NCBI GenBank assembly: GCA_030141605.1
Contig: JAQGDQ010002381.1
Location: forward strand, 1-64,000
Source: Tubiluchus corallicola
Lineage: Eukaryota > Priapulida > Priapulimorpha > Priapulimorphida > Tubiluchidae
Direction of reading: 5' to 3'
Length of the DNA stretch: 64,000 nt
A model generated the notes under the pieces. It was not told the DNA's origin and made no database searches. It saw only the letters and a list, made by a program, of their open reading frames with translations. This document shows, in pieces, positions 1 to 63,279 of this stretch. Position 1 is the first letter of the stretch; every line of letters starts with the position of its first letter. The translations under genes and the position numbers were made by a program.

Positions 1-2755
1 TTTGTAAATACACAATTAGTGCATAATTTACTGTATCAATTTCTTTACAAGTCTCCTTATTCATTACCTATTTGGCTTTTGTAAATACACAATTAGTGCT
101 TAATTTACTGTATTAACTTCTTTACAAGTCTCCTTTATTCATTACCTATTGGGCTTTTGTAAATACACAATTAGTGCTTAATTTACTGTATTAACTTCTT
201 TACAAGTCTCCTTTATTCATTACCTATTGGGCTTTTGTAAATACACAATTAGTGCTTAATTTACTGTATTAACTTCTTTACAAGTCTCCTTTATTCATTA
301 CCTATTGGGCTTTTGTAAATACACAATTAGTGCATAATTTACTGTATCAATTTCTTTACAAGTCTCCTTATTCATTACCTATTTGGCTTTTGTAAATACA
401 CAATTAAGCACTAATTGTGTATTTACAAAGCTTGTAGTAATAGAATAAAATTATAAGAAATTTAATACAAGCACTATTACAAAAGCTAATAAATAACCTA
501 GCGTAAAAATAATAGATAATGAATAAAAAATGATACAGTAAATTAAGCACTAATTGTATTTTACAAAAGCCAAATTAATGAATAAAGACACTTGTAAAAG
601 TTAATACAGTAAATTAAGCATATTGTGTACAAGCCTAATAGGTAATGAATAAAGCAGACCTGTAAAGAAGTTAATACAGTAAATTAAGCACTAATTGTGT
701 ATTTACAAAAGCCTAATAGGTCATGAATAAAGCAGACGTGCTAAGAAATTAATACAGTAAATTAAGCACTAATTGTGTATTTACAAAAGCCTAATAGGTA
801 ATGAATAAAGGAGACTTGTAAAGAAGTTAATACAGTAAATTAAGCACTAATTATGTATTCACAAAAGCCAAATAGGTAATGATTATGGAGACTTGTAAAC
901 AAATTGATACAGTAAATTATGCACTAATTGTGTATTTACAAAAGCCCAATAGGTAATGAATAAAGGAGACTTGTAAAGAAGTTAATACAGTAAATTAAGC
1001 ACTAATTATGTATTTACAAAAGCCAAATAGGTAATGAATAAAGGAGACTTGTAAAGAAGTTAATACAGTAAATTAAGCACTAATTATGTATTCACAAAAG
1101 CCAAATAGGTAATGATTATGGAGACTTGTAAACAAATTGATACAGTAAATTATGCACTAATTGTGTATTTACAAAAGCCCAATAGGTAATGAATAAAGGA
1201 GACCTGTAAAGAAGTTAATACAGTAAATTAAGCACTAATTGTGTATTTACAAAAGCCCAATAGGTAATGAATAAAGGAGACTTGTAAAGAAGTTAATACA
1301 GTAAATTAAGCACTAATTGTGTATTTACAAAAGCCAAATAGGTAATGAATAAGGAGACTTGTAAACAAATTGATACAGTAAATTATGCACTAATTGTGTA
1401 TTTACAAAAGCCCAATAGGTAATGAATAAAGGAGACTTGTAAAGAAGTTAATACAGTAAATTAAGCACTAATTGTGTATTTACAAAAGCCCAATAGGTAA
1501 TGAATAAAGGAGACTTGTAAAGAAGTTAATACAGTAAATTAAGCACTAATTGTGTATTTACAAAAGCCAAATAGGTAATGAATAAGGAGACTTGTAAACA
1601 AATTGATACAGTAAATTATGCACTAATTGTGTATTTACAAAAGCCCAATAGGTAATGAATAAAGGAGACTTGTAAAAAGTTAATACAGTAAATTAAGCAC
1701 TAATTGTGTATTTACAAAAGCCCAATAGGTAATGAATAAAGGAGACTTGTAAAGAAGTTAATACAGTAAATTAAGCACTAATTGTGTATTTACAAAAGCC
1801 AAATAGGTAATGAATAAGGAGACCAGTAAAGAAATTAATACAGTAAATTAAGCACTAATTGTGTATTTACAAAAGCCTAATAGGTAATGAATAAAGGAGA
1901 CCTGTAAAGAAGTTAATACAGTAAATTAAGCACTAATTGTGTATTTACAAAAGCCCAATAGGTAATGAATAAAGGAGACTTGTAAAGAAGTTAATACAGT
2001 AAATTAAGCACTAATTGTGTATTTACAAAAGCCCAATAGGTAATGAATAAAGGAGACTTGTAAAGAAGTTAATACAGTAAATTAAGCACTAATTGTGTAT
2101 TTACAAAAGCCAAATAGGTAATGATTAAGGAGACTTGTAAACAAATTGATACAGTAAATTATGCACTAATTGTGTATTTACAAAAGCCCAATAGGTAATG
2201 AATAAAGGAGACTTGTAAAGAAGTTAATACAGTAAATTAAGCACTAATTGTGTATTTACAAAAGCCCAATAGGTAATGAATAAAGGAGACTTGTAAAGAA
2301 GTTAATACAGTAAATTAAGCACTAATTGTGTATTTACAAAAGCCAAATAGGTAATGAATAAGGAGACTTGTAAACAAATTGATACAGTAAATTATGCACT
2401 AATTGTGTATTTACAAAAGCCCAATAGGTAATGAATAAAGGAGACTTGTAAAGAAGTTAATACAGTAAATTAAGCACTAATTGTGTATTTACAAAAGCCC
2501 AATAGGTAATGAATAAAGGAGACTTGTAAAGAAGTTAATACAGTAAATTAAGCACTAATTGTGTATTTACAAAAGCCAAATAGGTAATGAATAAGGAGAC
2601 TTGTAAACAAATTGATACAGTAAATTATGCACTAATTGTGTATTTACAAAAGCCCAATAGGTAATGAATAAAGGAGACTTGTAAAGAAGTTAATACAGTA
2701 AATTAAGCACTAATTATGTATTCACAAAAGCCAAATAGGTAATGAATAAGGAGAA
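1..2755. repeat. ~78-bp satellite array with 233-bp higher-order period and internal inversion
   Basis: The monomer is about 78 bp and contains the blocks CACTAATTGTGTATTTAC, AATAGGTAATGAATAAAGG and TTAATACAGTAAATTAAGC. Bases 1-405 carry it in reverse orientation and bases 406-2755 forward, with a perfect palindromic junction around 395-430. In the forward part a variant monomer (TGATACAGTAAATTATGC) recurs at about 909, 1138, 1371, 1604, 2147, 2380 and 2613, so three monomers form a 233-bp higher-order unit. Bases 440-650 are degenerate. No coding capacity was seen. Confidence 0.95.
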
Positions 2756-2879
2756 TTGAAGAAAAGAAATTGATACAGTAACAAATAGGTAAGTGTTTGA
2801 GAATAGAGTTAAATGACGTAAGCCTTCCGTTAATGTACAAAGCATTTCAGTTCCCTTAACTTTATACATGTTTTTATGT

Positions 2880-3080
2880 ACCTGTGATAAATTATTCACT
2901 GATTATGTATTTACAAAGACTTAAATAGGCAATGATTACTGGCTCCATGTAAAAAATTACCCCTAATGATGACAGCAGTAGCTCTGTCAAAACGATTTGC
3001 ATGGTTTTTTAGCTCTGTAAACTAAAAGTTTTAATAAAGTTGTGGTGTTGTTACTATAAAGGCAACTATAAATTTTAACT
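2880..3080 (+). repeat. Dispersed repeat copy: satellite-like head plus hammerhead-like tail
   Basis: The copy begins with a degenerate satellite monomer (GATTATGTATTTACAAAG, AATAGGCAATGA). It continues with TGATGACAGCAGTAGC, CTGTCAAAACG and ends AAAAGTTTTAATAAAGTTGT. The same order of blocks occurs at 38330-38470, and the tail half occurs in reverse at 37893-37990. This links the satellite monomer to a dispersed element. Function is unknown. Confidence 0.6.
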
Positions 3081-3181
3081 ATATTTTCCTAAGTTTAAGT
3101 GATGACGTTAGGTTAAACCCAACATACAGAGTGACTTGTTGTTTCCTTTAAAAACAGTAATAAACTTTGTTGACTACTCAC

Positions 3182-5492
<2,311 letters not shown>

Positions 5493-5575
5493 CTGAAAAG
5501 TATTGAACTTGATACATTTGTGAACTTCGTGAAAAATGATTGAGTTCTAAACAGATGCTTAGAGAATAAGGTTAA

Positions 5576-5810
5576 AGGAAGATAGGATGATCTTTCATAT
5601 ACTATTTTCAATTGTGATAAAAATGTATATATTTTAACAGAGTCAATACTGCAAAAGCGTTTCTGATTATTAAATAATAGATTAAAATCTAATTAACAGT
5701 GGGATAATTTCCAACCAATTCCTTTATTATATTATTCTAAGTTTAAGTGATGACAGTAAAATAAACCCAACACACTGAGTGACTTGTTGTTTGCTTAAAG
5801 CCTTATTATT

Positions 5811-16156: not shown

Positions 16157-16453
16157 TTACTGAGTAATTGGCGCTGCTGCAGTTCATGGCGCACGTAAAT
16201 TTGATAGTCTCTCGTACATTTTTGTACAAAAGTAGATTTTATATTCTGACAAAATAATTTTGGACCTCGTATGCAGTTGACATTTATAGTGTTAGATCGT
16301 CTGTGCACTGGCAAGCTGTTCATTTTACCGGCAGTCTGTATAATTTTGACAAATTGATGGTATTGCGGAGACTTCGTTCAAGTTTTCCCGCCATTTGGAG
16401 CTTCACAAAGGAATTCGGTTACCGGTAAACACAGACATACACGAGCGTACAGA

Positions 16454-17329
16454 ATGACTTCGACAAGCGATCACAACATTACCCTGGATGAGTTTCGACT
16501 GTTAAACCCAAAACAAAGAGAAAAAGTCAATAAAAGTGAATTACTGAGGCTACTATCAGAATCAGAAATGACACCGCAAGCAGAGTCAGGTCTCGAGGAC
16601 AGCAGTAAAGGCACTGAACTAGAAAGTCAAGCAGCTATGGAAACAAGGATTATTCAACAGGTTAGATTATTAATTTTTCCATTATCCAAGGAAATCTCTG
16701 AACTAAAGCAGCTCACAGATCAAGTTAAATCTAGCCAGGACTTTATAAGCAGCAAATTTGACCAATTTAAAATGGAGACAGATGCTTTAAAAAAGACCAC
16801 CAATGATCTTACTAAAAAATTAAACGAGCTAGAGAGAAAGCAGGATGATTTAGACCAGTATGGGCGACGGAACACCCTCATTATCTCCGGTATACCCCAA
16901 GCTAGTGATTATGAAAATACTGACGAAATTGTTTGTCAAGTAGGTCAAGCCCTCAAGGTGAACATCTGTAAAGAGGACATCTCGATCTCCCATCGATTGC
17001 CACGAAAAGAAAGTGCTACAAGACCACCTCAGATTATTGTGAAATTTATAAAACGGAAAGTAAGAGACTGTTTGTGGCAAAACAAACCCAAGAGAAATGG
17101 ATCTCTTAAGGCTAGTGATTTAGGGTATGTTTCACATAATCTTGTGTACATTAGTGAAAGTTTAACTAATCGTAGACGTGTATTACTTAACAAATGTCTC
17201 GAACTAAAAAGAAACAAAGTAATCTTGTATGTTTGGACTAAAAATGGCCAGATTTTCATCAGGAAAACTGAAACATCTGAACCCTTCCCTGTAAACAATT
17301 TTGATGATGTAGATAAATTAAAACACTAA
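16454..17329 (+). CDS. LINE ORF1 protein (coiled coil, L1/CR1-type)
   Basis: This intact 291-residue protein has a Ser/Glu-rich N-terminal part and a predicted coiled coil at about residues 60-135 (KEISELKQLTDQVK, then KLNELERKQDDLDQ). The block QYGRRNTLIISGIP then opens the nucleic-acid-binding domain found in many LINE ORF1 proteins. The C-terminal part is Lys/Arg-rich. The family role is RNA chaperone and particle formation with the element transcript. ORF2 begins a few bases after the TAA, so the two ORFs form one bicistronic unit. Confidence 0.85.
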   Translation: MTSTSDHNITLDEFRLLNPKQREKVNKSELLRLLSESEMTPQAESGLEDSSKGTELESQAAMETRIIQQVRLLIFPLSKEISELKQLTDQVKSSQDFISSKFDQFKMETDALKKTTNDLTKKLNELERKQDDLDQYGRRNTLIISGIPQASDYENTDEIVCQVGQALKVNICKEDISISHRLPRKESATRPPQIIVKFIKRKVRDCLWQNKPKRNGSLKASDLGYVSHNLVYISESLTNRRRVLLNKCLELKRNKVILYVWTKNGQIFIRKTETSEPFPVNNFDDVDKLKH

Positions 17330-17366
17330 TCCCTTCTTCACTCGTTTGAATCAATTTCTCATTGTA

Positions 17367-20300
17367 ATGGTTAGCTTTAATTGTACTAAGTGTAATAAAA
17401 CTTGCAAAGCAAATCAAAACTCAATTCAATGTGATGTGTGTTCCCTCTGGACACATCTAAAGTGTACAATGTTGTCTCATCATGAATTTGTAAATTTAGC
17501 AAATTCTAATGACAGTTACTTCTGCCAGCAATGCATTAATGATGTGCTTCCTTTGCAGTTCATTGATGATGATGAATTTATGGAAATGACTAATCACTAT
17601 CAATTTTCTAATTTTGTAAAAGATTTATCTTGCTTTTCATCAATTTATGACTCTTCTTCGCTAGTCCACTGTAATAGAGATGATACAGACATCGACAATT
17701 ATAGACTTCAGTATGACAGCAAATACATTAATCTTGCAAATCTGAGTAGTGATAAATCCACAGATAAAGCAAACAATGACACATTTATAATACACTTTAA
17801 CACATCAAGTTTGAGGAAATACTATTCAGACATGACTGATACATTAACACAATTTCAAAAAATGCCTGAGTTAATAGCGATCTCGGAAACCAGAATTCAC
17901 GAATCTGACACTTTTTTATGTAACATTCCAGGATATTCTTTCTTACACTATGATTCCAATACAGCTGCTGGTGGCGTAGGTGTGTATGTAAAATCTAGTC
18001 TCAATTTTAAAATTAAACCTGAATACAAAATAAGAACTTGTAAAAATGTTATTGTTAATGGGATTAGTACAACTAGTAGACTAGCACTTGAGGACCTGTG
18101 GCTCGAAATTGCTTCCACCGATAACAAAAAATCTTTCATATTTGGAGTAATATATAGGCATCCAAACACCCCAGTCGAGCATTTTCATGACGAATTAGAA
18201 TCAGTTCTTTGCACTATCAACTCCACAGGCAAACCAGCTTATATATGTGGAGACATTAATATAGATTTATATCAACATGATAACAAGCCATTTATTAATA
18301 AGTATCTCAACATGCTCTTCTCAAATCAATTTACACCAATTATCACGCGACCAACTAGAATTACTCCAACGTCACACACCTTAATTGATCATATTTATAC
18401 TAATAATCTTTCTACACCCATCACATCTGGCATCATTACTAACCCCATTGCGGACCACTTGCCAATATTTGCCATTATAAGAAATACTAATCTCCTGCAC
18501 AACAAGATTAAAAAATCAGTCAGATGTACGAGATCATTCAATCAAGGTAACTTTTTAAGCGAGCTTCAAGTTAATATAAGTAACCTAACACTGAATGATG
18601 GCGAAGCAGACATACACTCTTACTGCTCACAATTCATGGACTCGTTTAAAACATTACTTGATAAACATGCCCCACTCAAAACGTTATCAAGGAAAAACTC
18701 AAAACTATAGCTAAACCATGGATCACTCCCGGCATTCTTAATTCTATTAAAACAAGAAGCCGTATGTATACAACACACAAGTTATCCAACTCGCTGTATA
18801 AGCAAAATTTATATAAAACATATTCTAACAAACTTAATCACATCAAACATGCATCCAAAAAGAAGTATTACTCCCAGATCTTGGTTGCAAACAAAAATAA
18901 CATGAAACAAACTTGGAGCACTATCAATGAACTTCTCAAAATTAAAAAAAGGACAGCTAGTATAATGCCAACTAAAGTTCGTTACCAAGGCACAACCTCG
19001 TGTGACCCGCACCATAAAGCTAATGCTTTTAACAGTTTTTTTGCAAACATTGGTATATCACTGGCATCACGCATAACACAACCCCAAAACTGTAAGTATA
19101 CAGACTATTTAATGCATCCCCAAGAAAATTCTTTCTATATCACACCAGTTAGCGAAATCGAGATGTCCCAAGCTATTGATAGACTAGATCCCAATAAAGC
19201 AAAAGGCCCTTATGACATCCCAATTACATATTTTAAAATGTCTAAAAACATAATTTTAGCTCCGCTTACAAATCTGTTTAATGCGTCAATTCTGACTGGG
19301 ACATTCCCCGACACTTTAAAACTGGCAAAAGTAATCCCCATATATAAAAAAGATGATCCAAATGAGCTGAACAACTACCGACCTATCTCACTCATATCAC
19401 CCATTGCCAAAATTTTTGAGTCAATTTTATATAAACGTCTGATGACATATTTAATCAAAAATGATACAATATCATGTTTTCAATTCGGTTTCCGCAAAAA
19501 TCATTCCACAATATTAGCAACTGCTGAAATCATAGACAATCTTCTGACAAACCTAGACAATAAATTACTTACCTGCGGCATTTTTCTTGATTTAACAAAA
19601 GCTTTTGACACCGTTCAACACGACATTTTACTCAACAAAATGGACTATTATGGTATCCGTGGAATCACGCAAAAACTATTCCAGTCATATCTTACAAACA
19701 GACACCAGTTTACGGTTGTTGACAATTTTGCCTCTGACCGATGCTCAATTCAGTGTGGTGTACCCCAAGGATCCACCTTGGGTCCACTTCTTTTCCTGAT
19801 ATATATAAATGACCTCCCTCTTTGTACTAACATGCAAACACGACTTTTTGCTGATGACACTAACCTCTTCTTAGCAGACAACGATACGCAAAATCTTGAG
19901 CTTAGAAGTAATGAAGAATTGATCAAAATTAACACATGGATGCGTACAAATAAGTTAACAGTAAACTATAATAAAACAAAATTTATGATCATAAGAAATA
20001 AATTTGAAAACAATGAAAACTCCATTATAACAGTATCCATGCAAGACTGTTTATTAGAACAAGTATCAGACATAAAATATCTGGGCGTCTACATAGATGA
20101 CACCCTTAATTGGTCAACACACATAAAAATATTACCTACAAAGTAAGCAAAGTTACAGGTATATTTTTTAAATTGAGGCATTACTTGAGCACGGATATAC
20201 TAAAAATGATTTACTTTGCCATTGTGTACCCACACATTAACTATTGTATCTTATCGTGGGGCACAGCAAAAAAATCTGTTTTGAAACCTCTTACATCAGC

Positions 20301-20685
20301 ACATAACAAAATTATCAAAACAATGACTTTTGCTGGGTTCCGAGATCATGCTACCCCTTCCTATTATGCTTTGCAATTATTAAAAATTAATGAAATTTAT
20401 AAGCTTGAGTTAGCGAAATTCATGTTCAAGTATAAAAAGTGCATTCTACCTAAATTATATGGCAATTATTTCAAAAAGATTAGTGACGTTCACCAGTATT
20501 CTACGAGAGCAGCTACCAAACAAAACTATTTTCAGGAAAGATTTAACACAACAAAAGGTCTACAAACTTTAAAACATAATGGTACAATTCTATGGAATAC
20601 TCTTTCAGATGATCTTAAGCAATCGACTAGTATCTATCAGTTAAGTAAATTATATAAATGTCAACTCTTGCAAACTTATTATTGA
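17367..20685 (+). pseudogene. LINE ORF2: PHD finger, AP endonuclease, reverse transcriptase (two frameshifts)
   Basis: The first methionine next to the zinc finger is at 17367; an in-frame ATG at 17346 also exists. Domains in order: a PHD-type finger (CTKC...CDVCSLWTHLKC...CQQC, about residues 6-58), an AP-like endonuclease (HFNTSSLRKYY, ISETRI, GDINIDL, ADHLP) and a reverse transcriptase (NNYRPISLIS, LDLTKAFDTVQH, GVPQGSTLGPLLF and the FADD box). A C-terminal region with YPHINYCILSWG follows. The frame breaks near 18690 and near 20128. Each break is explained by one missing A in an A run. Otherwise the reading is intact, so the copy is either young or broken by sequencing error. Confidence 0.88.
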
Positions 20686-21345: not shown

Positions 21346-21638
21346 ACCACGGATGTGTAAAACTGGAAACCGTGTACGTCAGTAGGATAGATGTTACACC
21401 TCTGGCCGATTTCCCGGGGGGGGTGGGGATTTCCCCGGGGGGGTGGGGAAAAACACCCCTAAAAAAGTGCGAAAATCCACGAAAACCCCTAAAAAAGTGT
21501 GAAAACCCGTGTGAAAGTGTGCACGTGACCGAAATCGACGAAAAAGCGCGAAAAACAAAGAAAAACAAAGAAAAGGCGTGTGAAACGAGGTAAAAATTTT
21601 CCAGTTTTTCCCTCCCGCATGGCTTCATTTGGATCGAA

Positions 21639-21680
21639 TGACCTTGAACTCTAGGTCACGTGACCAAAGTTCATTGACCC
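21639..21680. promoter_or_regulatory. Nuclear-receptor / E-box motif cluster, left arm
   Basis: Reverse complement of the right-arm cluster: TGACCTTGAACT, palindromic GGTCACGTGACC and AGTTCATTGACCC within 42 bp. Motif identity is seen in the sequence; function is inferred. Confidence 0.4.
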
Positions 21681-21726
21681 CTGGCCCCTGGATGGCTTCT
21701 TTTTTTGACGCCCCATTTTAAACCGC

Positions 21727-21815
21727 GCGAAAGCGCTCGAAAGCGCGCGAAAGTGTGTGAAAGCGTGTGAAAGCGCGTGAAAGCATGTGAAAGTGTGTGA
21801 AAGTGTGTGAAACGA
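21727..21815. repeat. ~10-bp subterminal repeats, left arm
   Basis: About nine consecutive units of GAAAGYGYGY (for example GAAAGCGCGC, GAAAGTGTGT). The mirrored set is at 25756-25850. Related GTGCGAAAA/GTGTGAAAA units lie nearer the end at 21465-21560. Confidence 0.85.
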
Positions 21816-22421
21816 GGTAAAAAGCGCCTCAAACGAAGAAAAAGGGAGAAGTGGAGTTCCCGCCGTGGACTAATTAGTGCTAATTGGCGCTAATTGGCGC
21901 TAATTGGGGAGCCCCTGCCACCCCTCCGCCGCATACAAACGTCCGTCCCGGGGGTCGGGGACCCCCCCCCCCCTGCAACCCACCCCTCCGTCGCGTGGAA
22001 TCGTCCACTGCAGGCAATGAGGGAAATCTTTTTCCCGCCACTCGCGCAGTGCCGGCCCTTTTCCGCGACCACTTCTCTCTCTCTCGGGTGTCCTCCCTTT
22101 TCCGCGACCACTTCTCTCGCGGGTTTAGATGTGTGTGTGTGTGGAGATTTATTTCAAATGCCAAAGTTCGATAAATGCATTTTCACAAATCTTTTTTATT
22201 GATGGATTACAGGTGTGGAGATTTATTTCAAACGCCAAAGTTCGATAAATGCATTTTCACAAATCTTTTTTTATTGATGGATTACAAAAAATTTTTTTAC
22301 ATTTTTTATGCAAAATACATACGTGCTAAAACTAGATTATTATTATTATTATGGTGACATGATAGTTCTACATTTTACGTTTTTTTCGCAAATTACACAA
22401 ATTATGCAAATTACAGTAAAA

Positions 22422-23012
22422 CTACACTAATGACGACGAGCGAGTACATGGATTGTCGTCGCCGTCGTCGATGTGATACAGACAAACGTTATTGTTGTTA
22501 AAAACGAATTCGTTAAATTTGCGGAAAACGCGAGAGAAATCCTCGACCTTTGTCCCGCCCATCATTATTATGCTTCCGGTGTGAAAAATGTTCAGAGTAA
22601 TTTGCTCGCATTTGCAAGTTAGTTTGGGAAATAGTTCCACTTCGTAAAACACTTCTCTAAAAGAATGCGTCGAAGGACGAACGAGTTCTTCGTACAGTGC
22701 ACCCAGTTTCAATCTGCAGCGAATTTTGGCTCTGGCGGTGATGGTGCGAATTGCGATCCCGTCGGCGGGCGTCAGTCCGAGACCTTTCGAGAGTTCTTCG
22801 ATCGCATTGCGTAGTACTTTTTCCTCCGAAAAACCGTTGGCCACCACGGAGCCGGAGGCAAAAATCATCAGCGTCCTGCCCAGTCGCTTTAGCAGAAGCA
22901 TTTGCGGTTTTCTTTCGTAGCGTCTTCCGCCCGTTCTCCGCCGGAGTTCGTTCAGATCGAAGCGCTGCGAGAACGAAGCCGTGGCGACGATGTTGACCGT
23001 TTGGACTGACAC
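22422..23012 (-). CDS. TBP-like protein (left-arm copy)
   Basis: Second copy of the TBP-fold gene at 24637-25227, nearly identical. One visible difference is a Gly in the acidic C-terminal run (DDGDD here, DDDDD on the right). The upstream part adjoins gene B in another frame, as in the right arm. The region between ATG 23453 and this frame crosses an assembly gap, so an apparently continuous reading through it is not meaningful. Confidence 0.75.
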   Translation of the reverse strand: MSVQTVNIVATASFSQRFDLNELRRRTGGRRYERKPQMLLLKRLGRTLMIFASGSVVANGFSEEKVLRNAIEELSKGLGLTPADGIAIRTITARAKIRCRLKLGALYEELVRPSTHSFREVFYEVELFPKLTCKCEQITLNIFHTGSIIMMGGTKVEDFSRVFRKFNEFVFNNNNVCLYHIDDGDDNPCTRSSSLV

Positions 23013-23453
23013 GTTAGAACATAGTTGGCAATCGTTTCGGACGCCCGAACCGCTCTGCCTCGTCCGTTGCTCTGCCAACGTATGGCGGGCGGTGGGTGGT
23101 CGCTTTCCAGATCCTCTACGCGTATGACCACGCGATTTTTGGGGAGATGTTTTTTGACGAAATCGTACATCTCTGCTCCCTTGACGTAGNNNNNNNNNNN
23201 NNNNNNNNNNNNNNNNNNNNNNNNNNNNNNNNNNNNNNNNNNNNNNNNNNNNNNNNNNNNNNNNNNNNNNNNTTAGGTAGTTGTAGGTGGATCGCTTGTG
23301 CTGGGGAACGCGATTCCAGGGGTGGGGCGGTTTGAAGGTGTAGTTGTGATATATGCCGGTCTCTATTTCGCGAATTACCAAATTTTTGACCAGGTATTCT
23401 TCTTTTCCGCACTGGAAGGCATCTACGGTGAGAACTATGCTCGATTCAGACAT
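22952..23453 (-). CDS. Gene B, left-arm copy (interrupted by assembly gap)
   Basis: Starts at ATG 23451-23453, overlapping the end of gene A, with MSESSIVLTVDAFQ, and ends at the same stop as the right copy. Bases 23190-23272 are Ns; the intact right arm has 94 bp there. See 24185-24697 for the family description. Confidence 0.6.
23190..23272. other. Assembly gap (83 N)
   Basis: Lies inside gene B of the left arm. The matching right-arm segment (24366-24459) is 94 bp, so the N count is not the true size if the arms are identical. Confidence 0.99.
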
Positions 23454-23727
23454 CTGTGACGATGGGGGGTCCTTCTACGCCGTCGGCAACGAGTTTTCCT
23501 TCGATGACGATTTGCTTGTGATTGTTCACAAATTCCAGAGACTTGATTTTTTCGAAGGTGTATTTTTTTATGACCTTGTTGGGGGCACTCTTGCGTGCGT
23601 TGGCGCGCTTGCCGCCCCGCGTCCCCGCTTGTTGTTGTTGCTTGCGAGGAACGGTGGTTAGAGGTTGTTTGAAATCCTGCAAGAGAAGAAGAACAATAGT
23701 TATAGTATTGTTGTTCGCTAACGACAA
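23446..23727 (-). CDS. Gene A: small basic protein of the element (fuller copy)
   Basis: The open frame has a Gln/Arg/Lys-rich middle (KQQQQAGTRGGKRANARK) and a C-terminal part (KKYTFEKIKSLEF, IVIEGKLVADG). It ends IVTDV with its TGA overlapping the ATG of gene B by 8 nt. The first ATG is not obvious: the frame opens at a TTG right after the stop of gene D, and TTCTTCTTCTCTTGCAG at about 23695-23679 looks like a splice acceptor, so the true 5' end may be a missing exon. A nucleic-acid-binding role is suggested by composition only. The right arm has the 3' part (23990-24192). Confidence 0.5.
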   Translation of the reverse strand: MSLANNNTITIVLLLLQDFKQPLTTVPRKQQQQAGTRGGKRANARKSAPNKVIKKYTFEKIKSLEFVNNHKQIVIEGKLVADGVEGPPIVTDV

Positions 23728-23989
23728 CTAGGCATTTTTGATGAGCCATTCTTTCAGATTTCTAGGTTTTTTGGGGGCAGTGGGGGTGAGCACCATCGGC
23801 GGCGATGGAGGGGGCGTCGCGGAAATTACGAGTTTGTCTTCTTCTTTATCATCATCTTTCTCCTCTTCCTCCTCCTCCTCTCGAAAGATGTCCATTCGTG
23901 TCCCTCTCTCGCGTCTGCTTTTACACGGAGGGGCGGAGGTGCCGACGTCCGTGTCTGGCAGACTTCTTTCCGTCCAGTTTGTCCAGTTC
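23728..23989 (-). CDS. Gene D: 3' end of an acidic protein in the centre (truncated)
   Basis: This minus-strand frame ends at TAG 23728-23730. It includes a Glu/Asp run (about FREEEEEEEKDDDKEEDK), a Pro-rich stretch (ATPPPSPPMVLTPTAP) and the end KKPRNLKEWLIKNA. Its 5' part is replaced by the right arm at about 23990, so it is a truncated remnant of the unique core. I do not recognise it. Low-complexity content limits confidence. Confidence 0.4.
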
Positions 23990-24192
23990 CTCGCAAGCAA
24001 CAACAACAAGCGGGGACGCGGGGCGGCAAGCGCGCCAACGCACGCAAGAGTGCCCCCAACAAGGTCATAAAAAAATACACCTTCGAAAAAATCAAGTCTC
24101 TGGAATTTGTGAACAATCACAAGCAAATCGTCATCGAAGGAAAACTCGTTGCCGACGGCGTAGAAGGACCCCCCATCGTCACAGATGTCTGA
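23990..24192 (+). pseudogene. Gene A, right-arm 3' fragment
   Basis: Carries the basic segment and the C-terminal part of gene A through the TGA at 24190-24192. The arm begins inside the gene, so the 5' end is missing. The stop overlaps the ATG of gene B (ATGTCTGA). Confidence 0.55.
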
Positions 24193-24697
24193 ATCGAGCA
24201 TAGTTCTCACCGTAGATGCCTTCCAGTGCGGAAAAGAAGAATACCTGGTCAAAAATTTGGTAATTCGCGAAATAGAGACCGGCATATATCACAACTACAC
24301 CTTCAAACCGCCCCACCCCTGGAATCGTGTTCCCCAGCACAAGCGATCCACCTACAACTACCTAATCAGACACATACACGGCATCTCGTGGGAGGAGGGA
24401 ATGATCGAGTACGCAGAATTGGAAAACATTCTACGACAGACCACCAGAGGCAGGATCACCTACGTCAAGGGAGCAGAGATGTACGATTTCGTCAAAAAAC
24501 ATCTCCCCAAAAATCGCGTGGTCATACGCGTAGAGGATCTGGAAAGCGACCACCCGCCGCCCGCCATACGTTGGCAGAGCAACGGACGAGGCAGAGCGGT
24601 TCGGGCGTCCGAAACGATTGCCAACTATGTTCTAACGTGTCAGTCCAAACGGTCAACATCGTCGCCACGGCTTCGTTCTCGCAGCGCTTCGATCTGA
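24185..24697 (+). CDS. Gene B: uncharacterised protein of the element
   Basis: The 170-codon frame starts at ATG 24185 inside the end of gene A. Conserved-looking blocks are IVLTVDAFQ near the N-terminus, HNYTFKPPHPWNRVPQHKRS, HGISWEEGMIEYAELENIL, then ITYVKGAEMYDFVKKHLP and VIRVEDLES. I recall similar block patterns (a hydrophobic strand with VD, FKPP-PW, HG--W--G, YVKG, NLEDL) in proteins of invertebrate mobile elements that look like DEDDh exonuclease folds. That link is from memory and weak. The last ~35 residues become Arg/Ser-rich and overlap gene C in another frame, so the true C-terminus may continue into gene C by frameshifting or splicing. Confidence 0.55.
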   Translation: MSESSIVLTVDAFQCGKEEYLVKNLVIREIETGIYHNYTFKPPHPWNRVPQHKRSTYNYLIRHIHGISWEEGMIEYAELENILRQTTRGRITYVKGAEMYDFVKKHLPKNRVVIRVEDLESDHPPPAIRWQSNGRGRAVRASETIANYVLTCQSKRSTSSPRLRSRSASI

Positions 24698-25227
24698 ACG
24701 AACTCCGGCGGAGAACGGGCGGAAGACGCTACGAAAGAAAACCGCAAATGCTTCTGCTAAAGCGACTGGGCGGGACGCTGATGATTTTTGCCTCCGGCTC
24801 CGTGGTGGCCAACGGTTTTTCGGAGGAAAAAGTACTACGCAATGCGATCGAAGAACTCTCGAAAGGTCTCGGACTGACGCCCGCCGACGGGATCGCAATT
24901 CGCACCATCACCGCCAGAGCCAAAATTCGCTGCAGATTGAAACTGGGTGCACTGTACGAAGAACTCGTTCGTCCTTCGACGCATTCTTTTAGAGAAGTGT
25001 TTTACGAAGTGGAACTATTTCCCAAACTAACTTGCAAATGCGAGCAAATTACTCTGAACATTTTTCACACCGGAAGCATAATAATGATGGGCGGGACAAA
25101 GGTCGAGGATTTCTCTCACGTTTTCCGCAAATTTAACGAATTCGTTTTTAACAACAATAACGTTTGTCTGTATCACATCGACGACGACGACGACAATCCA
25201 TGTACTCGCTCGTCGTCATTAGTGTAG
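24637..25227 (+). CDS. Gene C: TATA-binding-protein-like protein
   Basis: The frame encodes two TBP-type repeats. Repeat 1 is VNIVATASFSQRFDLNELRR ... MIFASGSVVANGFSEE. Repeat 2 is IAIRTITARAKIRCRLKLGA ... YEVELFPKLTCKC ... NIFHTGSIIMMGGTK. The spacing matches the TBP saddle, including the ELFP and IF-SG positions that hold DNA-intercalating phenylalanines in cellular TBP. The first intercalating Phe of repeat 1 appears replaced (KPQMLLL). Total domain length is about 175 residues, as in TBP cores, followed by an acidic tail. No ATG precedes the domain in this frame. The frame is open back into gene B, so expression by frameshift, splicing or a non-AUG start must be assumed. Expected role: promoter recognition for the element's own genes. 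Confidence 0.8.
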   Translation: MSVQTVNIVATASFSQRFDLNELRRRTGGRRYERKPQMLLLKRLGGTLMIFASGSVVANGFSEEKVLRNAIEELSKGLGLTPADGIAIRTITARAKIRCRLKLGALYEELVRPSTHSFREVFYEVELFPKLTCKCEQITLNIFHTGSIIMMGGTKVEDFSHVFRKFNEFVFNNNNVCLYHIDDDDDNPCTRSSSLV

Positions 25228-25375
25228 TTTTACTGTAATTTGCATAATTTGTGTAATTTGCGAAAAAAACGTAAAATGTAGAACTATCACGTCACCATAA
25301 TAATAATAATAATCTAGTTTTAGCACGTATGTATTTTGCATAAAAAAATGTAAAAAAAATTTTTTGTAATCCATC

Positions 25376-25381
25376 AATAAA
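25376..25381 (+). terminator. Polyadenylation signal of gene C
   Basis: AATAAA about 150 nt after the gene C stop. The mirrored signal lies in the left arm near 22265-22270. Confidence 0.55.
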
Positions 25382-25755
25382 AAAGATTTGTGAAAATGCA
25401 TTTATCGAACTTTGGCGTTTGAAATAAATCTCCACACACACACACACACACACACATCTAAACCCGCGAGAGAAGTGGTCGCGGAAAAGGGAGGGCACCC
25501 GAGAGAGAGAAGTGGTCGCGGAAAAGGGCCGGCACTGCGCGAGTGGGGGGGGGGAAGATTTCCCTCATTGCCTGCAATGGACGATTCCACGTGACGGAGG
25601 GGTGGGTTGCAGGGGGGGTGTCCCCGACCCCCGGGACGGACGTTTGCACGCGGCGGAGGGGTGGCAGGGGCTCGCCAATTAGCGCCAATTAGCACTAATT
25701 AGTCCTCGGCGGGAACTCCACTTCTCCCTTTTTCTTCGTTTGAGGCGCTTTTTAC

Positions 25756-25850
25756 CTCGTTTCACACACTTTCACACGCTTTCGCGCACTTTCACACACT
25801 TTCACGCGCTTTCACACACTTTCACATGCTTTCGCGCGGTTTTGCGCGGT
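25756..25850. repeat. ~10-bp subterminal repeats, right arm
   Basis: Units of ACACACTTTC / ACGCGCTTTC type in tandem, mirroring 21727-21815. Confidence 0.85.
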
Positions 25851-25884
25851 TTAAAATGGGGTGTCAAAAAAAGAAGCCATCCAG

Positions 25885-25926
25885 GGGTCAATGAACTTTG
25901 GTCACGTGACCTAGAGTTCAAGGTCA
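25885..25926. promoter_or_regulatory. Nuclear-receptor / E-box motif cluster, right arm
   Basis: GGGTCAATGAACT at 25885-25897 is an inverted repeat with 1-bp spacer, as in ecdysone-receptor/RXR sites. GGTCACGTGACC at 25900-25911 is a palindromic E-box. AGTTCAAGGTCA at 25915-25926 is a spacer-less direct repeat containing the FTZ-F1/ERR extended half-site TCAAGGTCA. Three such motifs in 42 bp, kept in both arms, suggest host-hormone-linked control (inference). Confidence 0.4.
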
Positions 25927-26643
25927 TTCGATCCAAATGAAGCCATGCGGGAGGGAAAAACTGCAAAATTTTTACCTCGTTTCACACGCCTTTTCTTCGT
26001 TTTTCTTTGTTTTTCGCGCTTTTTCGTCGATTTCGGTCACGTGCGCACTTTCACACGGGTTTTCACACTTTTTTAGGGGTTTTCGCGGATTTTCGCACTT
26101 TTTTAGGGGTGTTTTTCCCCACCCCCCCGGGCAGCCAAAGGGGGGGTGGGGAAATCGGCCAGAGGCAAAACATCTATACTACTGAGGCCGAAATACCTGG
26201 GAAAGTTAAAGTTGTCCAAAAGTCCTGTAAGACCTTCACGACCTGGTAGAACCAGTACTTGACAATAATTATTGAAATTATCTCTTTTACTGCATTTGTC
26301 ACAGACTGGCAATGTTTAAAGCATGTGACGCAAATTGTGGCCTTCAACTATAGGTGACAGTAGGAAATTGTAATAAAACCCATCGACCTGTTTTTGTGAC
26401 TTGATTATAGCTTTTTAATATAAGGCTTAGTTCTAAAAATCCTAACGTTGATTGGGATAATATGTACAAAACATCCAGGTTACAGAATTCTTGAGATTCG
26501 AACACCAAACTATCACTGTCCGTTTGTTTTGGATTTTTTTTTGTAAAAAATAAACCAAAACAGGTACACCAGGGGAAAGTAATTTTTGTTATTATAATGG
26601 TTATTCTCGCGGTGATTTCCAAATAGTTGTTTTCTTTTTATAG

Positions 26644-40746
<14,103 letters not shown>

Positions 40747-51300: not shown

Positions 51301-54300
51301 TAAAAGTTGAATTATCAGTGAATGATAAATTATTATGTAGAAGATAACCGCCCTGCAGGTCAAGTGACTAACCTCAAAATTGTCCTTGAAATCTATCATC
51401 TACTACCATTAATCCTTGCAAAGCGCCTTGTGTAAAAAACATCTCTGGTTATTTGTGCTCAAAGAGAAAAAGCTTCTCATAATATTCTTGATTTCTAAAT
51501 GCAGGTTTAGTGATTATTTACCAATGATGACTTATCACCTTAATGGAATATGGAACAAACACGCTGGTCATGGAAGTCCTTTGCATCCTCACTCCTACGA
51601 TGTGGACAAAACTGCGAATATTGTAAGTGAAGAGGTCGCCTTTGAAATATCTTTGTTTTTAGTAATTTCAGTTAAGTGTAAGACAACTTGGAAAATCACA
51701 CACAAGCAAGGGCAGCATTTTTGTGTCATGTGTGTGAAAGGGATAAATTATTGGAAAATCACGGAAGCACTTTTGAGACTAATAGCTATGAAGATGCGGT
51801 ATGATCGTTTTCCTTAGATAACCTAGTAATCTTCCATGCCATATAGTGTTCCTTGGTTTTTAGGGTACTTGGATAACCTAATAATCTTCCATGCCATGTA
51901 GTGTTCCTTAGTTTTTAGTGTACTTGGATAACCTAATAATCTTCCATGCCATGTAGTGTTCCTTAGTTTTTAGTGTACTTAGATAATCTAATAATCTTCC
52001 ATGCCATATAATGTTCCTTAGTTTTTAGTGTACTTAGATAACCTAATAATCTTCCATGCCATGTAGTGTTCCTTAGTTTTTAGGGTACTTAAATAACCTA
52101 GTAATCTTTCATGTCATATAGCGTTCCTTAGTTTTTAGTGTACTTAGATAATCTAATAATCTTCCATGCCATGTAATGTTCCTTAGTTTTTAGTGTACTT
52201 AGATAATCTAATAATCTTCCATGCCATGTAATGTTCCTTAGTTTTTAGCGTACTTAGATAATCTAATAATCTTCCATGCCATATAATGTTCTTTAGTTTT
52301 TAGTGTACTTAGATAATCTAATAATCTTCCATGCCATGTAGTGTTCCTTAGTTTTTAGTGTACTTAGATAATCTATTAATCTTCCATGCCATGTAGTGTT
52401 GCTTAGTTTTTAGTGTACTTAGATAATCTAATAATCTTCCATGCCATGTAGTGTTCCTTAGTTTTTAGTGTATTTAGATAATCTAATAATCTTCCATGCC
52501 ATATAACGTTCCTTAGTTTTTAGTGTACTTAGACAATCTAATAATCTTCCATGCCATATAGCGTTCCTTAGTTTTTAGTGTACTTAGATAATTTAATAAT
52601 CTTCCATGCCATATAGCGTTCCTTAGTTTTTAGTGTACTTAGATAACCTAAATCCTATTATCGTTGCTTTTTTTTAAGGAATTCATCGTCCAATATTGGA
52701 TAAACCATGGAACGGATCCAAAGAAATTGCTGCTGGGAATTCCTCTTTTTGGACAGACTTACACTCTCCAAGACCCATCTGACCACATGTTAAATGCACC
52801 TATTGTAGGAAGTGGCAAGGCTGGACACATGTATCAACAGGAAGGAATGATGCCGTACTACGAGGTTTGTGCCCACAAAACTTTGCTTGAGCTTATTCTT
52901 ATTAAGATTTTCGGCTTCTTGTGGATTGGTAAACACCAATCTTATTACTGCTTAAGTGATAGATTTAGCCAACTGAACAACTGATAATGCTTCTTGCGAA
53001 TATTTTTTGAATGACTTACAGATCTACGTCTTCACTCATAATAAATGAATAAATTACGACAAAATTTGCAGATTATAAAGATTCGCAAATCTGTTTCGGA
53101 AAATTCACAAACATTTTAATGGTACCAATGTGCGGCATTTGTCACATTTGCAAATAAATAAAAATTGTGGTTTATTTCTATTAATTTTAATGACTTGCAT
53201 TACTTAAATCTTTTGTAGGTGTGTTCTGAAGTGATGCCAAGCTATGAAAGCTTTTGGGTTGAAGATCAGCTTGTTCCATTTGCTTACAAAAATGACCAAT
53301 GGATTGGCTACGAGGATTCAAGGAGTATTAGTGAAAAGGTAACAATCCTTTGCAGTATATTTGGACAAGTTCTAGAACTTCCATCACCAAACTTTCACTA
53401 ATTTTTTTGTACGTATTGTTGACCACAGTTAGCATTCAACTGGTTACTGATCACCAACTTTTGTAATTTTTGCAACGCATTTGCATGTTATCAACGGGCC
53501 TCATTTTTCCCTGACTGACAATAGGGTTCGTCTAACTAGTTTTTGTTTGTAGGTCAAGTATGTGATCGACAATCACCTTGGAGGCGTTATGGTCTGGGCA
53601 TTAGGTTTTGATGATTTTAAAGGTCATTGTAATCATGGAAGGAATCCTCTGTTGACCACAATAAAAACAGAATTGCTGGAAGTGACACAGGTGACCTATG
53701 TAATCCACACAAAATCTTCAAATGTTTTACAGCAGTTGCCGCACAAGTATGAAACGGGTGCAGTAGAACCACATTATGCAACATCACATCACGGTGAGAC
53801 GTACAGGCGTCATACTGTGCAACATCGGCGACACTACGTACAACATGTATCCCATCAGCAAGAAGGACAACACCCTGTTCATGGATATGATGAGCACCAT
53901 GCCTACCATGGGCACAGTCGCAGTCGCAGAGTGGAGTCATCATATTCACGGCACGGGAATTATCACGATGCGTATCCTCATCAAACACAAGGAAGTTACA
54001 TACCATATCAAGAACACGAAATGATTCCCCACGAAACGTACAATTACGAAACATATCCACACAGAGATGCATATGAAGTCTACCCTAGCAACAGCTATCC
54101 TTATGACGCTCACAATTATGTAATATATCTGCCGGAGCAGTATGACGTGCACCCTCATCAAACACATGAGAATTACGGTGCATATTCAGCACATGGACAG
54201 TATGATGATTTCGAAGTACATCCTCGTGAAAGTTCTGAAATATATCCAGTAAACGAGCCGCATGCGTACCCTTATGAAAAAAGCAATTATTACGATACTT

Positions 54301-56705
54301 ACCCTGGGTCTGAACTCTATGAAGTTCATCCTTATGAAAGTTATGGTTATGAAACACACCCTGATGAACTGTATGCTGAACATGGACATTATGAAGGGCA
54401 TCCTCGTGAAACATACCCTGAACATGGACATTATGAAGGGCATCCTCGTGAAACATATCCTGAACATGGACATTATGAAGGGCATCCTCGTGAAACATAC
54501 CCTGAACATGGACATTATGAAGTGCATCCTCGTGAAACATACCCTGAACATGGACATTATGAAGTGCATCCTCGTGAAACATACCCTGAACATGGACATT
54601 ATGAAGTGCATCCTCATGAAACATACCCTGAACATGGACATTATGAAGTGCATCCTCGTGAAACATACCCTGAACATGGACACTATGAAGTGCATCCTCA
54701 TGAAACATACCCTGAACATGGACATTATGAAGTGCATCCTCGTGAAACATACCCTGAACATGGACATTATGAAGTGCTTCCTCATGAAACATACCCTGAA
54801 CATGGACACTATGAAGTGCTTCCTCATGAAACATACCCTGAACATGGACACTATGAAGTGCATCCTCATGAAACATACCCTGAACATGGACACTATGAAG
54901 TGCATCCTCGTGAAACATACCCTGAACATGGACATTATGAAGTGCATCCTCGTGAAACATACCCTGAACATGGACATTATGAAGTGCATCCTCATGAAAC
55001 ATACCCTGAACATGGACATTATGAAGTGCATCCTCATGAAACATACCCTGAACATGGACATTATGAAGTGCTTCCTCATGAAACATACCCTGAACATGGA
55101 CACTATGAAGTGCATCCTCATGAAGCGTACCCTGAACATGGACACTATGAAGTGCTTCCTCATGAAACATACCCTGAACATGGACACTATGAAGTGCATC
55201 CTCATGAAACATACCCTGAACATGGACACTATGAAGTGCATCCTCGTGAAACATACCCTGAACATGGACATTATGAAGTGCATCCTCGTGAAACATACCC
55301 TGAACATGGACATTATGAAGTGCATCCTCATGAAACATACCCTGAACATGGACATTATGAAGTGCATCCTCATGAAACATACCCTGAACATGGACATTAT
55401 GAAGTGCTTCCTCATGAAACATACCCTGAACATGGACACTATGAAGTGCATCCTCATGAAACATACCCTGAACATGGACATTATGAAGTGCTTCCTCATG
55501 AAACATACCCTGAACATGGACACTATGAAGTGCATCCTCATGAAACATACCCTGAACATGGACACTATGAAGTGCATCCTCATGAAACGTACCCTGAACA
55601 TGGACACTATGAAGTTCATCCTAATGAATTATATCCTCATGAAGAGTATCCTGAACATGGACACTATGAAGTGCATCCTCATGAAACGTATCCTGAACAT
55701 GGACACTATGAAGTGCATCCTCATGAAGAGTATCCTGAACATGGACACTATGAAGTGCATCCTCATGAAACGTATCCTGAACATGGACACTATGAAGTGC
55801 ATCCTCATGAAACGTACCCTGAACATGGACACTATGAAGTGCATCCTCATGAAACGTATCCTGAATATGGACACTATGAAGTGCATCCTCATGAAACGTA
55901 CCCTGAATATGGACACTATGAAGTGCATCCTCATGAAACGTACCCTGAACATGGACACTATGAAGTGCATCCTCATGAAACGTACCCTGAACATGGACAC
56001 TATGAAGTGCATCCTCATGAAACGTACCCTGAACATGGACACTATGAAGTGCATCCTCATGAAACGTACCCTGAACATGGACACTATGAAGTGCATCCTC
56101 ATGAAACATACCCTGAACATGGACACGATGCATATGAAAGCTATCCAGGCCACTATGATACGTATCCATCACATGTTTCCACAGTTGGTATTCCATTTCC
56201 ACACCATACAGCTTATTCTTATGAAGGGTATCCTACAAATCAATCCTATGAACAATATCCACGTAATACTTACAACGATTATGAATTACCTGGTACTGTT
56301 GGACACGAGACATATCCCAGTAATACTCATGGGGGCGAAAGCCTTGGCCCAGTAGTTGCCCAGGAAGAGCAGAGGCCATATAATCCAGAATTGGAGGAAA
56401 CAAAACTTTCGGATTCCGGTTCATCTGCTTCTGGAAGAAACGGCGCTGTGGGAATGGCTACAGAAAGTACGCAATGTGAGGTGAAAGGACCAGGTCCCTC
56501 TTGCTCCGGACATTCGCACATGGTAATGGCAAATCCAATAAACTGTCGCAAGTACTATCTATGTCTGTGGCAGAACACACCCAATGAAATGCGTGTTCCA
56601 ATGAACTGCCCGGAGGGAACAGTCTTTCATCCATTCAAATACATGTGTGATGATAAGGAAAATGTTGATACATCCGTAATATGTAAATGTGGAGAAGAGT
56701 CGTGA
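47078..56705 (+). CDS. Chitinase-like GH18 protein with His/Tyr repeat array and chitin-binding domain
   Basis: Exons: 47078-47147, 48481-48672, 50611-50873, 51116-51240, 51505-51622, 52679-52864, 53219-53338 and 53553-56705. All are GT-AG with consistent phases, giving 1408 residues. A signal peptide (GVCLVLVLLAGLSS) is followed by a complete GH18 domain (~35-425; LLAVGGWAEGSQRF, FDGLNVDWEFPGY, PMMTYHLNG, LLLGIPLFGQTY, GGVMVWALGFDDFKG). A Tyr/His-rich linker, ~42 copies of a 14-residue repeat (~633-1218) and a six-cysteine type-2 chitin-binding domain (~1333-1405) follow. Catalytic Glu153 and Asp151 are kept. The second Asp of DxxDxDxE is Asn149, and the Asp of MxYD is His228, so hydrolysis is probably weak or lost. 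An in-frame ATG at 47051 is an alternative start, but TTATTTTTGCAG just before 47078 could be an acceptor of a 5'-UTR intron. AATAAA follows at 56846. Confidence 0.9.
48060..48306 (+). mobile_element. LINE 3' end with conserved stem-loop and (CTTG)n tail
   Basis: AGGGTGGC (48094-48101) pairs with GCCACCCT (48128-48135). The loop has CTGACC...GATGAC and TTCTTTC as in the LINE at 21048. Downstream are AATAAAC-type sequence and about a dozen CTTG units. Coding sequence is absent (5'-truncated copy), inside intron 1 of the chitinase-like gene. Confidence 0.7.
49676..49770 (-). mobile_element. LINE-type 3' tail, (TTGAA)n
   Basis: On the minus strand an AAATAAAAAATTATT is followed by TGAATTGAATTGAATTG, a microsatellite-like tail of a short 5'-truncated insertion. 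Its other boundary is unclear. Confidence 0.45.
51795..52655. repeat. 55-bp intronic minisatellite (about 15 copies)
   Basis: Unit AATAATCTTCCATGCCATGT plus AGTGTTCCTTAGTTTTTAGT plus GTACTTAGATAATCT in the intron between exons 5 and 6 of the chitinase-like gene. Small variants only. Confidence 0.95.
54370..56125 (+). repeat. 42-bp coding minisatellite: 14-residue His/Tyr/Glu/Pro repeats
   Basis: The consensus peptide is HGHYEVHPHETYPE. The N-terminal units have EGHPRE, the middle mixes HPRE, HPHE and LPHE, and the C-terminal units are HPHE with some YPEYGH. One unit is altered (HPNELYPHEEYPE). An eight-unit block (336 bp) is duplicated in tandem at about 54847-55520. His plus Tyr make up roughly 40 percent of each unit, with two or three Glu. 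All other long frames over this region are shadows. Confidence 0.97.
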
Positions 56706-62456: not shown

Positions 62457-62574
62457 GTCTACGGCCATATCACATTGAATACACCGGTTCTCGTCTGATC
62501 ACCGAAGTTAAGCAATGTAGAGCGTGGTTAGTACTTGGATGGGGGACCGCCTAGGAATACCACGTGCTGTAGAC
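62457..62574 (+). rRNA. 5S rRNA: 5S ribosomal RNA, copy 1
   Basis: 118-nt gene starting GTCTACGGCCATATCACATT and ending GTGCTGTAGAC, followed by TTTTT as RNA polymerase III terminator. Helix I pairs fully (GTCTACGG with CTGTAGAC). Internal promoter: A box AGTTAAGCAA and C box GGTTAGTACTTGGATGGG. The C-box region has GGGGGACC where copy 2 has GGGTGACC. Confidence 0.95.
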
Positions 62575-62912
62575 TTTTTAGCTAGTGACTATTAACTATC
62601 AAAGTGTGTGCACAACACGACCGTTTCATTTTGACAGTATTGTTTTTGATTTTTGGAAGTTGAAGTGGTGAAAATAAATGTCTGTCTCGACATTATGTTG
62701 ATTTTTTTTGCATTTTAATGTGAAAGACTATCTACTTGTTGCATTTCTCCAATATTATACAAAGTAAGGAAAAATGAAAATAAAACTAGAAAATCAGCCA
62801 CTGTCCTTCAAAAATGATTTTTGATTTTCATAAAAAATCAAAACAGATACTTTGTTACTACGTTCACCTTCATCTATCTATTATTTCTATATTATCTGTC
62901 TATAACAAAATG

Positions 62913-62970
62913 CAGAAGTTAAGCAACCTCAAACCTGGTTTTGCGTTTGAATGGGTGACTGCCCGGTACT
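62913..62970 (+). pseudogene. Partial 5S rRNA-like fragment
   Basis: Contains GAAGTTAAGCAACCTC, AACCTGGTT and GAATGGGTGACTGCCCGG in 5S order with deletions. Both ends are missing. Its AACCTGG differs from the neighbours' AGCGTGG, so it may derive from another 5S variant or a 5S-derived SINE. Confidence 0.6.
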
Positions 62971-63279
62971 TACATTTTTCTAAATGATCAGGAAGGGTGA
63001 TGACAAATGCTGTAAGATCTTTTTCACCACTCAAAAATGGATTTTTGTTCTGACAAATATTTTTAAATGAAGAATCTTTTTGCTTGTTCATGCTTGATCA
63101 TTCCCATGTTTAATTATGTCATATCTAGAAGGTAATATACTTAAGCACGGTATTCAACCTCCCTGACATTTTATAATTTCATGTGATATTTCTGTTTATA
63201 CTTTGCATTAAAATGCTAAAAAGGTTTACTTGTTCATGTACATCATTTCTATGTTAACTCATCTTAAGAAACTGTTAAT

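What the first reader, a model, noticed from the sequence alone, without database searches (positions are those of the whole stretch)
21379..26185. Undescribed-looking palindromic element with paired copies of a TBP-like gene
Two ~2.2-kb arms each carry the same outward-facing compact gene set, including a protein with both repeats of the TATA-binding-protein saddle. TBP homologues are known in some large DNA viruses but are not a usual part of transposons. The arms are GC-rich against an AT-rich host and nearly identical, so arrival or gene conversion was recent. The 337-bp centre holds only the 3' end of another gene, as if the unique core of a larger element had been deleted between its terminal repeats.
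Basis: partly seen in the sequence, partly recalled or inferred. Interest (0 to 1): 0.88.

Follow-up and report, generated by a model that had tools for sequence, protein, structure and literature searches.

The report
TBP-carrying Maverick end, mis-joined palindrome
This looks like the left end of a Maverick/Polinton (a virus-like giant transposon) in a eukaryote, probably animal, genome that carries its own TATA-binding-protein gene; the mirror-image layout in this window was largely made by genome assembly, although real mirror-image offcuts of such elements seem to occur in the same genome.

Summary
The sequence facts are real: two inverted arms, each with genes C and A and a TATA-binding protein (TBP) homologue (Pfam E 4.7e-22; saddle model pLDDT 83). 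The context changes the reading. The same genome holds at least two dozen such ends. The centre, right arm and (by lengths and sampled sequence) a 341.6-kb tail to the right recur in 12 other scaffolds, behind different left sides where these are readable. So the 2 x 2.2-kb palindrome joins two different copies around a shorter contiguous inverted junction (380-bp stub, 333-bp centre, right arm).

Two copies with longer cores indicate the left end of a Maverick/Polinton: rve integrase with chromodomain, ATPase-, capsid-, protease- and PolB-like genes, (AGT)2-type termini. The one PolB-side end read in full shares only ~86 bp with the arm and lacks TBP, so the arms are probably not native terminal repeats. 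Junctions with 8-10 bp microhomology suggest snap-back duplication of one end.

New: a largely intact TBP gene in a Maverick (59% identical relative elsewhere); no such report in the papers searched. Weak points: no 6-bp target duplication in 4 of 4 palindromes tested; no complete element on one contig.

The parts
21381..23189 (-). outer part of a left-end arm (b-type terminus AGTAGGATAGATGTTACACC), copy 1, with its own left flank
22422..23033 (-). TBP-like gene, left copy (no stop inside)
22952..23453 (-). gene A, left copy, interrupted by the N gap
23190..23272 (.). 83-N gap; sequence right of it belongs to the shared scaffold
23273..23652 (-). 380-bp inner arm stub (start of gene A; gene C from 23446, its frame continuing into the centre)
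23653..23985 (-). centre: 3' end of gene D (stop at 23728-23730, minus strand), truncated at the inverted junction
23986..23994 (.). 9-bp microhomology GTTCCTCGC at the inverted junction
23986..26183 (+). right arm, a-type terminus (AGTAGTATAGATGTTTTGCC read inward)
23986..24192 (+). gene C, right copy (5' end missing)
24185..24697 (+). gene A, right copy, 170 aa, function unknown
24616..25227 (+). TBP-like gene, right copy; start codon not identified (first in-frame ATG is residue 45 of this segment)

Best explanation
The arms are copies of the left terminal 2.2 kb of a Maverick/Polinton-type provirus of roughly 16 kb. Shown: on copy C1626 the order from the left end is TBP, A, C, D (all towards the left end), then ATPase-like, basic, unnamed ORF, integrase with chromodomain, two ORFs, a capsid-like ORF, an adenain-like protease, then a PolB-like frame on the other strand; on copy C2073 PolB is followed by an accessory ORF and an a-type terminus. 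Shown: the window joins the outer left arm of one copy to a scaffold carrying a shorter inverted junction. Inferred: such junctions form when a strand of one end folds back at an 8-10-nt inverted microhomology and is copied to its own terminus (snap-back), giving end-duplicated derivatives, as protein-primed linear genomes can do. Inferred: the TBP acts as the element's own promoter-binding factor, directing host RNA polymerase II to the element's genes.
For: rve E 1.8e-17 and Chromo 8.4e-6, both above cut-off; ends resemble the (AGT)2//(ACT)2 motif of vertebrate Mavericks (passages of PMC8097293); gene D continues from the centre into a longer core in C1626 and an internally deleted one in C2033. 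The PolB-side end of C2073 shares 86 bp with the a-type arm (two ~30-bp pieces with the window's b-type arm) and has no TBP or gene A match better than E 0.60; its DNA is a separate multi-copy set. Microhomology of 9, 10 and 8 bp at the window, C229 and C197 junctions; about 9 bp at C47 by eye. Inverted right-end DNA also occurs in C1714 (arms 96.4%). TBP: 25 of 27 distinct sequences without internal stop; pN/pS 0.62 for TBP (21 copies), 0.18 for gene A (11 copies); a 59% relative, P0001.
Against: No 6-bp target duplication in 4 of 4 palindromes tested (window, C229, C47 by eye; C1714). C47 has an a-type left and a b-type right end, which a simple snap-back does not give. C1714's centre holds a further partial right-end copy, so it is not a clean fold-back. 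TBP-bearing arms with a-type termini exist (6 of the 23 ends). Only one PolB-side end was read in full; the second one fetched (C88) is rearranged. Capsid, protease, ATPase and PolB names rest on weak or no profile matches and on recalled motifs and gene order. TBP pN/pS of 0.62 is only mild constraint. At C47 the script's exact-word rule found no microhomology.
Confidence: 0.7

Rival explanations
1. One reading: the element natively has 2.2-kb terminal inverted repeats with TBP at both ends, and the core between them was deleted.
For: TBP-bearing arms exist with both terminus types, and 5 of 6 a-type and 15 of 17 b-type ends form two separate groups, as left and right repeats would. C47 has an a-end and a b-end around a ~33-bp centre.
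Against: The PolB-side a-type end of C2073 has only 86 bp in common with the arm and no TBP; right-end DNA of that kind gives 151 matches.
Confidence: 0.13
2. All palindromes are assembly artefacts; in the genome only single left ends exist, each joined to a full core.
For: The window join is made of re-used sequence; contig ends or gaps recur at arm positions 1726-1729 and 1849-1855; no target duplications found.
Against: The junctions at C2228, C229, C197 and C47 are free of N, differ from each other and, in 3 of 4 by script, sit on 8-10-bp microhomologies; C1714 is free of N with arms 96.4%, not 100%, identical.
Confidence: 0.15
3. The TBP gene is a decaying capture of a host gene without function in the element.
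For: TBP pN/pS 0.62 among 21 copies; no ATG-initiated frame covers the first 44 residues used here.
Against: 25 of 27 distinct sequences without internal stop; 59% identity to P0001 with long conserved blocks; confident saddle model.
Confidence: 0.1

Closest known systems
Maverick/Polinton elements of animals
   Same: rve integrase with chromodomain, (AGT)2-type ends, adenain-like protease, P-loop ATPase and PolB-like frame in one element; several copies in the host genome
   Different: carries a TBP homologue plus genes A, C and D at the left end. Term look-ups in the main texts of PMC8097293, PMC10328495, PMC10120064 and PMC11071308 found neither TATA nor TBP; no target duplication could be shown
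Adintoviruses
   Same: integrase with C-terminal chromodomain, as in the definition in PMC11071296 (passages)
   Different: the OTU-like domain of PolB and hexon BLASTp reciprocity were not tested; neither TATA nor TBP in that main text
TBPs of giant viruses and mirus-like elements
   Same: virus-encoded TBP: CpV-BQ1 (PMC12085832, passages) and sporadically mirus-like elements of Cymbomonas (PMC10675990, passages)
   Different: CpV-BQ1 also encodes TFIIB proteins and many other transcription genes; here TBP sits in a ~16-kb element. None of the ORFs read looked like an RNA polymerase, but no search for one was made
Snap-back (inverted end-duplicated) defective genomes of linear DNA viruses
   Same: one end duplicated in inverted orientation around a short single-copy loop (comparison recalled, no call)
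   Different: here found as chromosomal copies; replication was not observed

Membership tests
Maverick/Polinton | rve-type integrase | tested here: met
   PF00665 E 1.8e-17, PF00385 Chromo 8.4e-6, L029 ORF 4019-5116
Maverick/Polinton | (AGT)2 / (ACT)2-type ends with inverted repeats | tested here: met
   a-type ends AGTAGT, b-type ends mostly AGTAGG; 86-bp repeat at 85% between a-type arm and PolB-side end, weaker with the window's b-type arm: 30 bp at 87% and 31 bp at 81%; motif from PMC8097293
Maverick/Polinton | 6-bp target-site duplication | tested here: inconclusive
   absent in 4 of 4 palindromes, but the flanks of the window scaffold come from different loci, and no complete element was found on one contig
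Maverick/Polinton | protein-primed PolB | tested here: inconclusive
   long open frame on C1626/C2073 with recalled polB motifs; no Pfam match of the C-terminal fragment; N-terminal part not scanned
Maverick/Polinton | double jelly-roll major capsid and minor capsid proteins | tested here: inconclusive
   ORFs at the expected place, no significant Pfam match, no PDB sequence match for the capsid-like ORF; structure not predicted
Maverick/Polinton | adenain-like protease | tested here: inconclusive
   PF00770 E 0.0071, below cut-off
Maverick/Polinton | FtsK-type packaging ATPase | tested here: inconclusive
   P-loop ORF, AAA_14 E 0.0056, FtsK_SpoIIIE E 0.0097, both below cut-off
Adintovirus | PolB with N-terminal OTU-like domain | not tested
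   no search made
TBP | two TBP repeats forming a saddle | tested here: met
   PF00352 two stretches, E 4.7e-22; model pLDDT 83.3, pTM 0.76 with duplicated strand-helix pattern; fold-library comparison not run

The most novel reading that the evidence does not exclude
A lineage of Mavericks encodes its own promoter-recognition factor, a diverged TBP conserved between element lineages, and so steers host RNA polymerase II to its genes. Its TBP-bearing end is also multiplied as snap-back palindromes that may spread as non-autonomous elements.
Probability: 0.4. Interest if true: 0.75.

Novelty: new variant of a known kind. Interest (0 to 1): 0.55.

Why it matters
Mavericks are thought to depend on host transcription (recalled). 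A TBP of their own would mean that a small element of this kind can take over core promoter recognition, which I found described only in larger viruses. The end-derived palindromes, if confirmed by long reads, would be a genomic record of copy-back replication in a protein-primed element. The case also warns that multi-copy inverted ends can make an assembly draw palindromes and duplicate hundreds of kilobases.

Tried and rejected
Rejected: 'new transposon class' (integrase and Maverick-type ends found); 'two native 2.2-kb terminal repeats' (the PolB-side end read lacks TBP); 'one intact palindrome in the window' (shared tail).

Led nowhere: IMG/VR scans with TBP, gene A, the TBP alignment A1, PolB and the capsid-like ORF (no relatives confirmed); gene A homologue search (none of 52 candidates at E <= 1) and gene A fold (pLDDT 38, not interpreted); Rfam and tRNA scans of the window (5S rRNA only); TBP against viral and PDB fold libraries (not completed); comparing the flanking 6-mers of the ends listed by eye for a target duplication (no exact pair). 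The chance test for the open TBP frame across gene A does not answer the question: the observed frame holds one stop (gene C's TGA) and shuffles with one stop were not counted. C59 was dropped as a clean palindrome because its inverted match runs past the terminus. One search picked the wrong record; repeated. Literature: 9 of 10 searches used; of 13 papers holding both 'polinton' and 'TATA', passages of 2 were read. Absence in print is claimed only for these searches and the five main texts. Rows dropped: BLAST pieces under 60 bp and 50 bp; one partial TBP match; 6 of 27 distinct TBP sequences not full-length, in frame or stop-free; ends C229 right, C47 right, C2003 and those without a readable terminus were left out of the tree.
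Full report
Observation. The window holds inverted arms at about 21381-23652 and 23986-26183 around a 333-bp centre. Gene segments are 99.5-100% identical; differences concentrate in the terminal noncoding, repeat-rich part. Each arm encodes, towards its own terminus, gene C (stop overlapping the next start by 8 nt), gene A (170 aa in the right arm) and a TBP homologue. The TBP frame matches PF00352 over two stretches (E 4.7e-22) and solved TBPs by sequence (best E 2.6e-9); a three-sequence model has mean pLDDT 83.3 with the duplicated saddle pattern. Three of the four phenylalanines that kink DNA in cellular TBPs are present (residues 58, 135 and 150 of the segment); the first is replaced (KPQ, residues 42-44); which residues these are is recalled, the positions are. 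Arms are GC-richer (0.47-0.51) than the rest of the window (0.35).

The palindrome is not what it seems. The left arm is interrupted by 83 N (23190-23272). A search of the window's own genome (343.5 Mb, 2344 contigs) gave 104 matches, with only the best 40 of 127 candidates scored. In 12 other scaffolds (C2185, C2, C2066, C1781, C457, C2200, C2159, C1850, C2271, C2254, C628, C2228) the right arm (2,200 bp) and centre are 100% identical to the window's. The adjoining flank is identical over about 1 kb in 10 of 10 compared. For 10 scaffolds, the window's included, contig length minus right terminus is exactly 341,600; in the other three the arm begins at 341,601 in the opposite orientation; the far 1,785 bp are identical in 6 of 6 scaffolds compared with C2228. 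The tail was sampled, not compared base by base. Nine of the 13 scaffolds have a readable other terminus, each with a different flank. So one 344.5-kb scaffold (C2228) was re-used, and what lies left of the N gap in this window is another copy. C2228 itself begins with a 380-bp inner stub of a left arm, then the centre and the right arm (L025), so a short inverted junction is contiguous there.

What the element is. In C1626 and C2033 the arm runs into the centre and on into more core, internally deleted in C2033. On C1626 the order from the left terminus is TBP, A, C, D (leftward), then a P-loop ATPase-like ORF, a basic ORF, an unnamed ORF, integrase with chromodomain (rve E 1.8e-17, Chromo 8.4e-6), two ORFs in the place of minor capsid proteins, a capsid-like ORF, and an ORF with a weak match to adenovirus protease (PF00770 E 0.0071, below cut-off). 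A PolB-like frame follows on the other strand; its fragment has no Pfam match and it is named by recalled motifs. Capsid names are by position and recall. The ends found read AGTAGT or AGTAGG; the commonest vertebrate Maverick end motif is (AGT)2//(ACT)2 (passages of PMC8097293). This fits a Maverick/Polinton-type element.

Where TBP sits. PolB gave 34 matches (33 of 33 candidates scored); eight at 99-100% lie on C1626, C88, C1972, C1994, C2034, C2113, C2284 and C2073. On C2073 PolB is followed by an accessory ORF and an a-type terminus 3,467 bp beyond the matched fragment; 86 bp at 85% match the a-type TBP arm (two ~30-bp pieces with the window's b-type arm), and no TBP or gene A is found there (one TBP hit at E 0.60). 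C88, also fetched, is rearranged and could not serve as a second end. DNA of that right end has its own large set of copies (151 matches, best 40 of 100 candidates scored). So, on one complete example, TBP is a left-end gene and the native inverted repeat is short.

Against this reading: six of the 23 TBP-bearing ends compared have a-type termini. Five of these six group together, apart from 15 of the 17 b-type ends; C2005 (a), C457 and C2033 (b) fall outside both groups. Terminus exchange or subfamilies may explain it; two native long repeats would also.

Palindromes. Inverted junctions in C2228/window, C229 and C197 carry 9, 10 and 8 bp of microhomology between the core side and the inverted arm; at C47 about 9 bp can be read by eye, though the script found none by its exact-word rule. 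A mirror-image arrangement of right-end DNA without N, with a-type termini on both sides and 96.4% identical arms, lies in C1714; its centre holds another partial right-end copy. This fits fold-back copying of either end. Against it: no 6-bp target duplication in the window, C229, C47 or C1714, and mixed termini in C47. Mis-joining may account for these, but that is shown only for the scaffolds that share the tail.

Is TBP a working gene? In 25 loci examined, 36 full or nearly full matches gave 27 distinct sequences (one further partial match dropped); 25 have no internal stop; the two that do have indels. Among 21 full-length copies pN/pS is 0.62; gene A gives 0.18 in 11 copies, part of which share the re-used inner segment and are not independent. 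A 145-aa relative (P0001, 59% identity, 1,855-nt contig) and a distant one (P0002, 27%, 7,805-nt contig) come from another source; organism and genomic setting are unknown. The TBP frame has no ATG before residue 45 of the segment used; P0001 starts at the equivalent methionine. How translation begins is open.

Mechanism proposed. The TBP would act in the nucleus as an element-specific promoter factor for host RNA polymerase II, made from a leftward gene cluster at the left end. This is inference from fold and conservation; no promoter test was made. Gene A has no relative found and no usable model.

Literature. Term look-ups for TATA and TBP in the main texts of five Maverick/adintovirus papers gave none. 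Of 13 papers holding both 'polinton' and 'TATA', passages of two were read: TBP in a giant algal virus and sporadically in mirus-like elements. Within these searches a TBP in a Maverick is not described.

Noticed in passing
   Followed up: yes
C88, C1972, C1994, C2034, C2113, C2284: Same-scoring PolB matches and right-end matches at constant distance suggest a second re-used scaffold in the same assembly.
   Followed up: no
L057 (C1714) 129-5716: Mirror-image arrangement of Maverick right-end DNA, arms 96.4%, 1.8-kb centre with a further partial right-end copy, no target duplication.
   Followed up: partly
window 24193-24697: The TBP frame stays open across the whole of gene A after gene C's TGA; possible overlapping coding or frameshift, not resolved.
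   Followed up: partly
window 23660-23720 (minus strand): 3' splice-site-like sequence (TACTATAAC, pyrimidine tract, CAG) just before gene C, which has no ATG of its own in the window (judged by eye).
   Followed up: no
window 62457-63398: Two 5S rRNA genes 823 bp apart with a degenerate 5S-like stretch between them (by eye).
   Followed up: no
window 16358-20685: Non-LTR retrotransposon in pieces just left of the element (reverse transcriptase and endonuclease-like ORFs, named by eye).
   Followed up: no
window 53553-56705: 1050-aa open frame with many copies of an HGHYEVHPHETYPE-like repeat and a cysteine-containing C-terminus.
   Followed up: no
window 27602-27660 and 29899-29957: 59-nt inverted repeats, 92% complementary, 2.2 kb apart; perhaps another transposon.
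   Followed up: no
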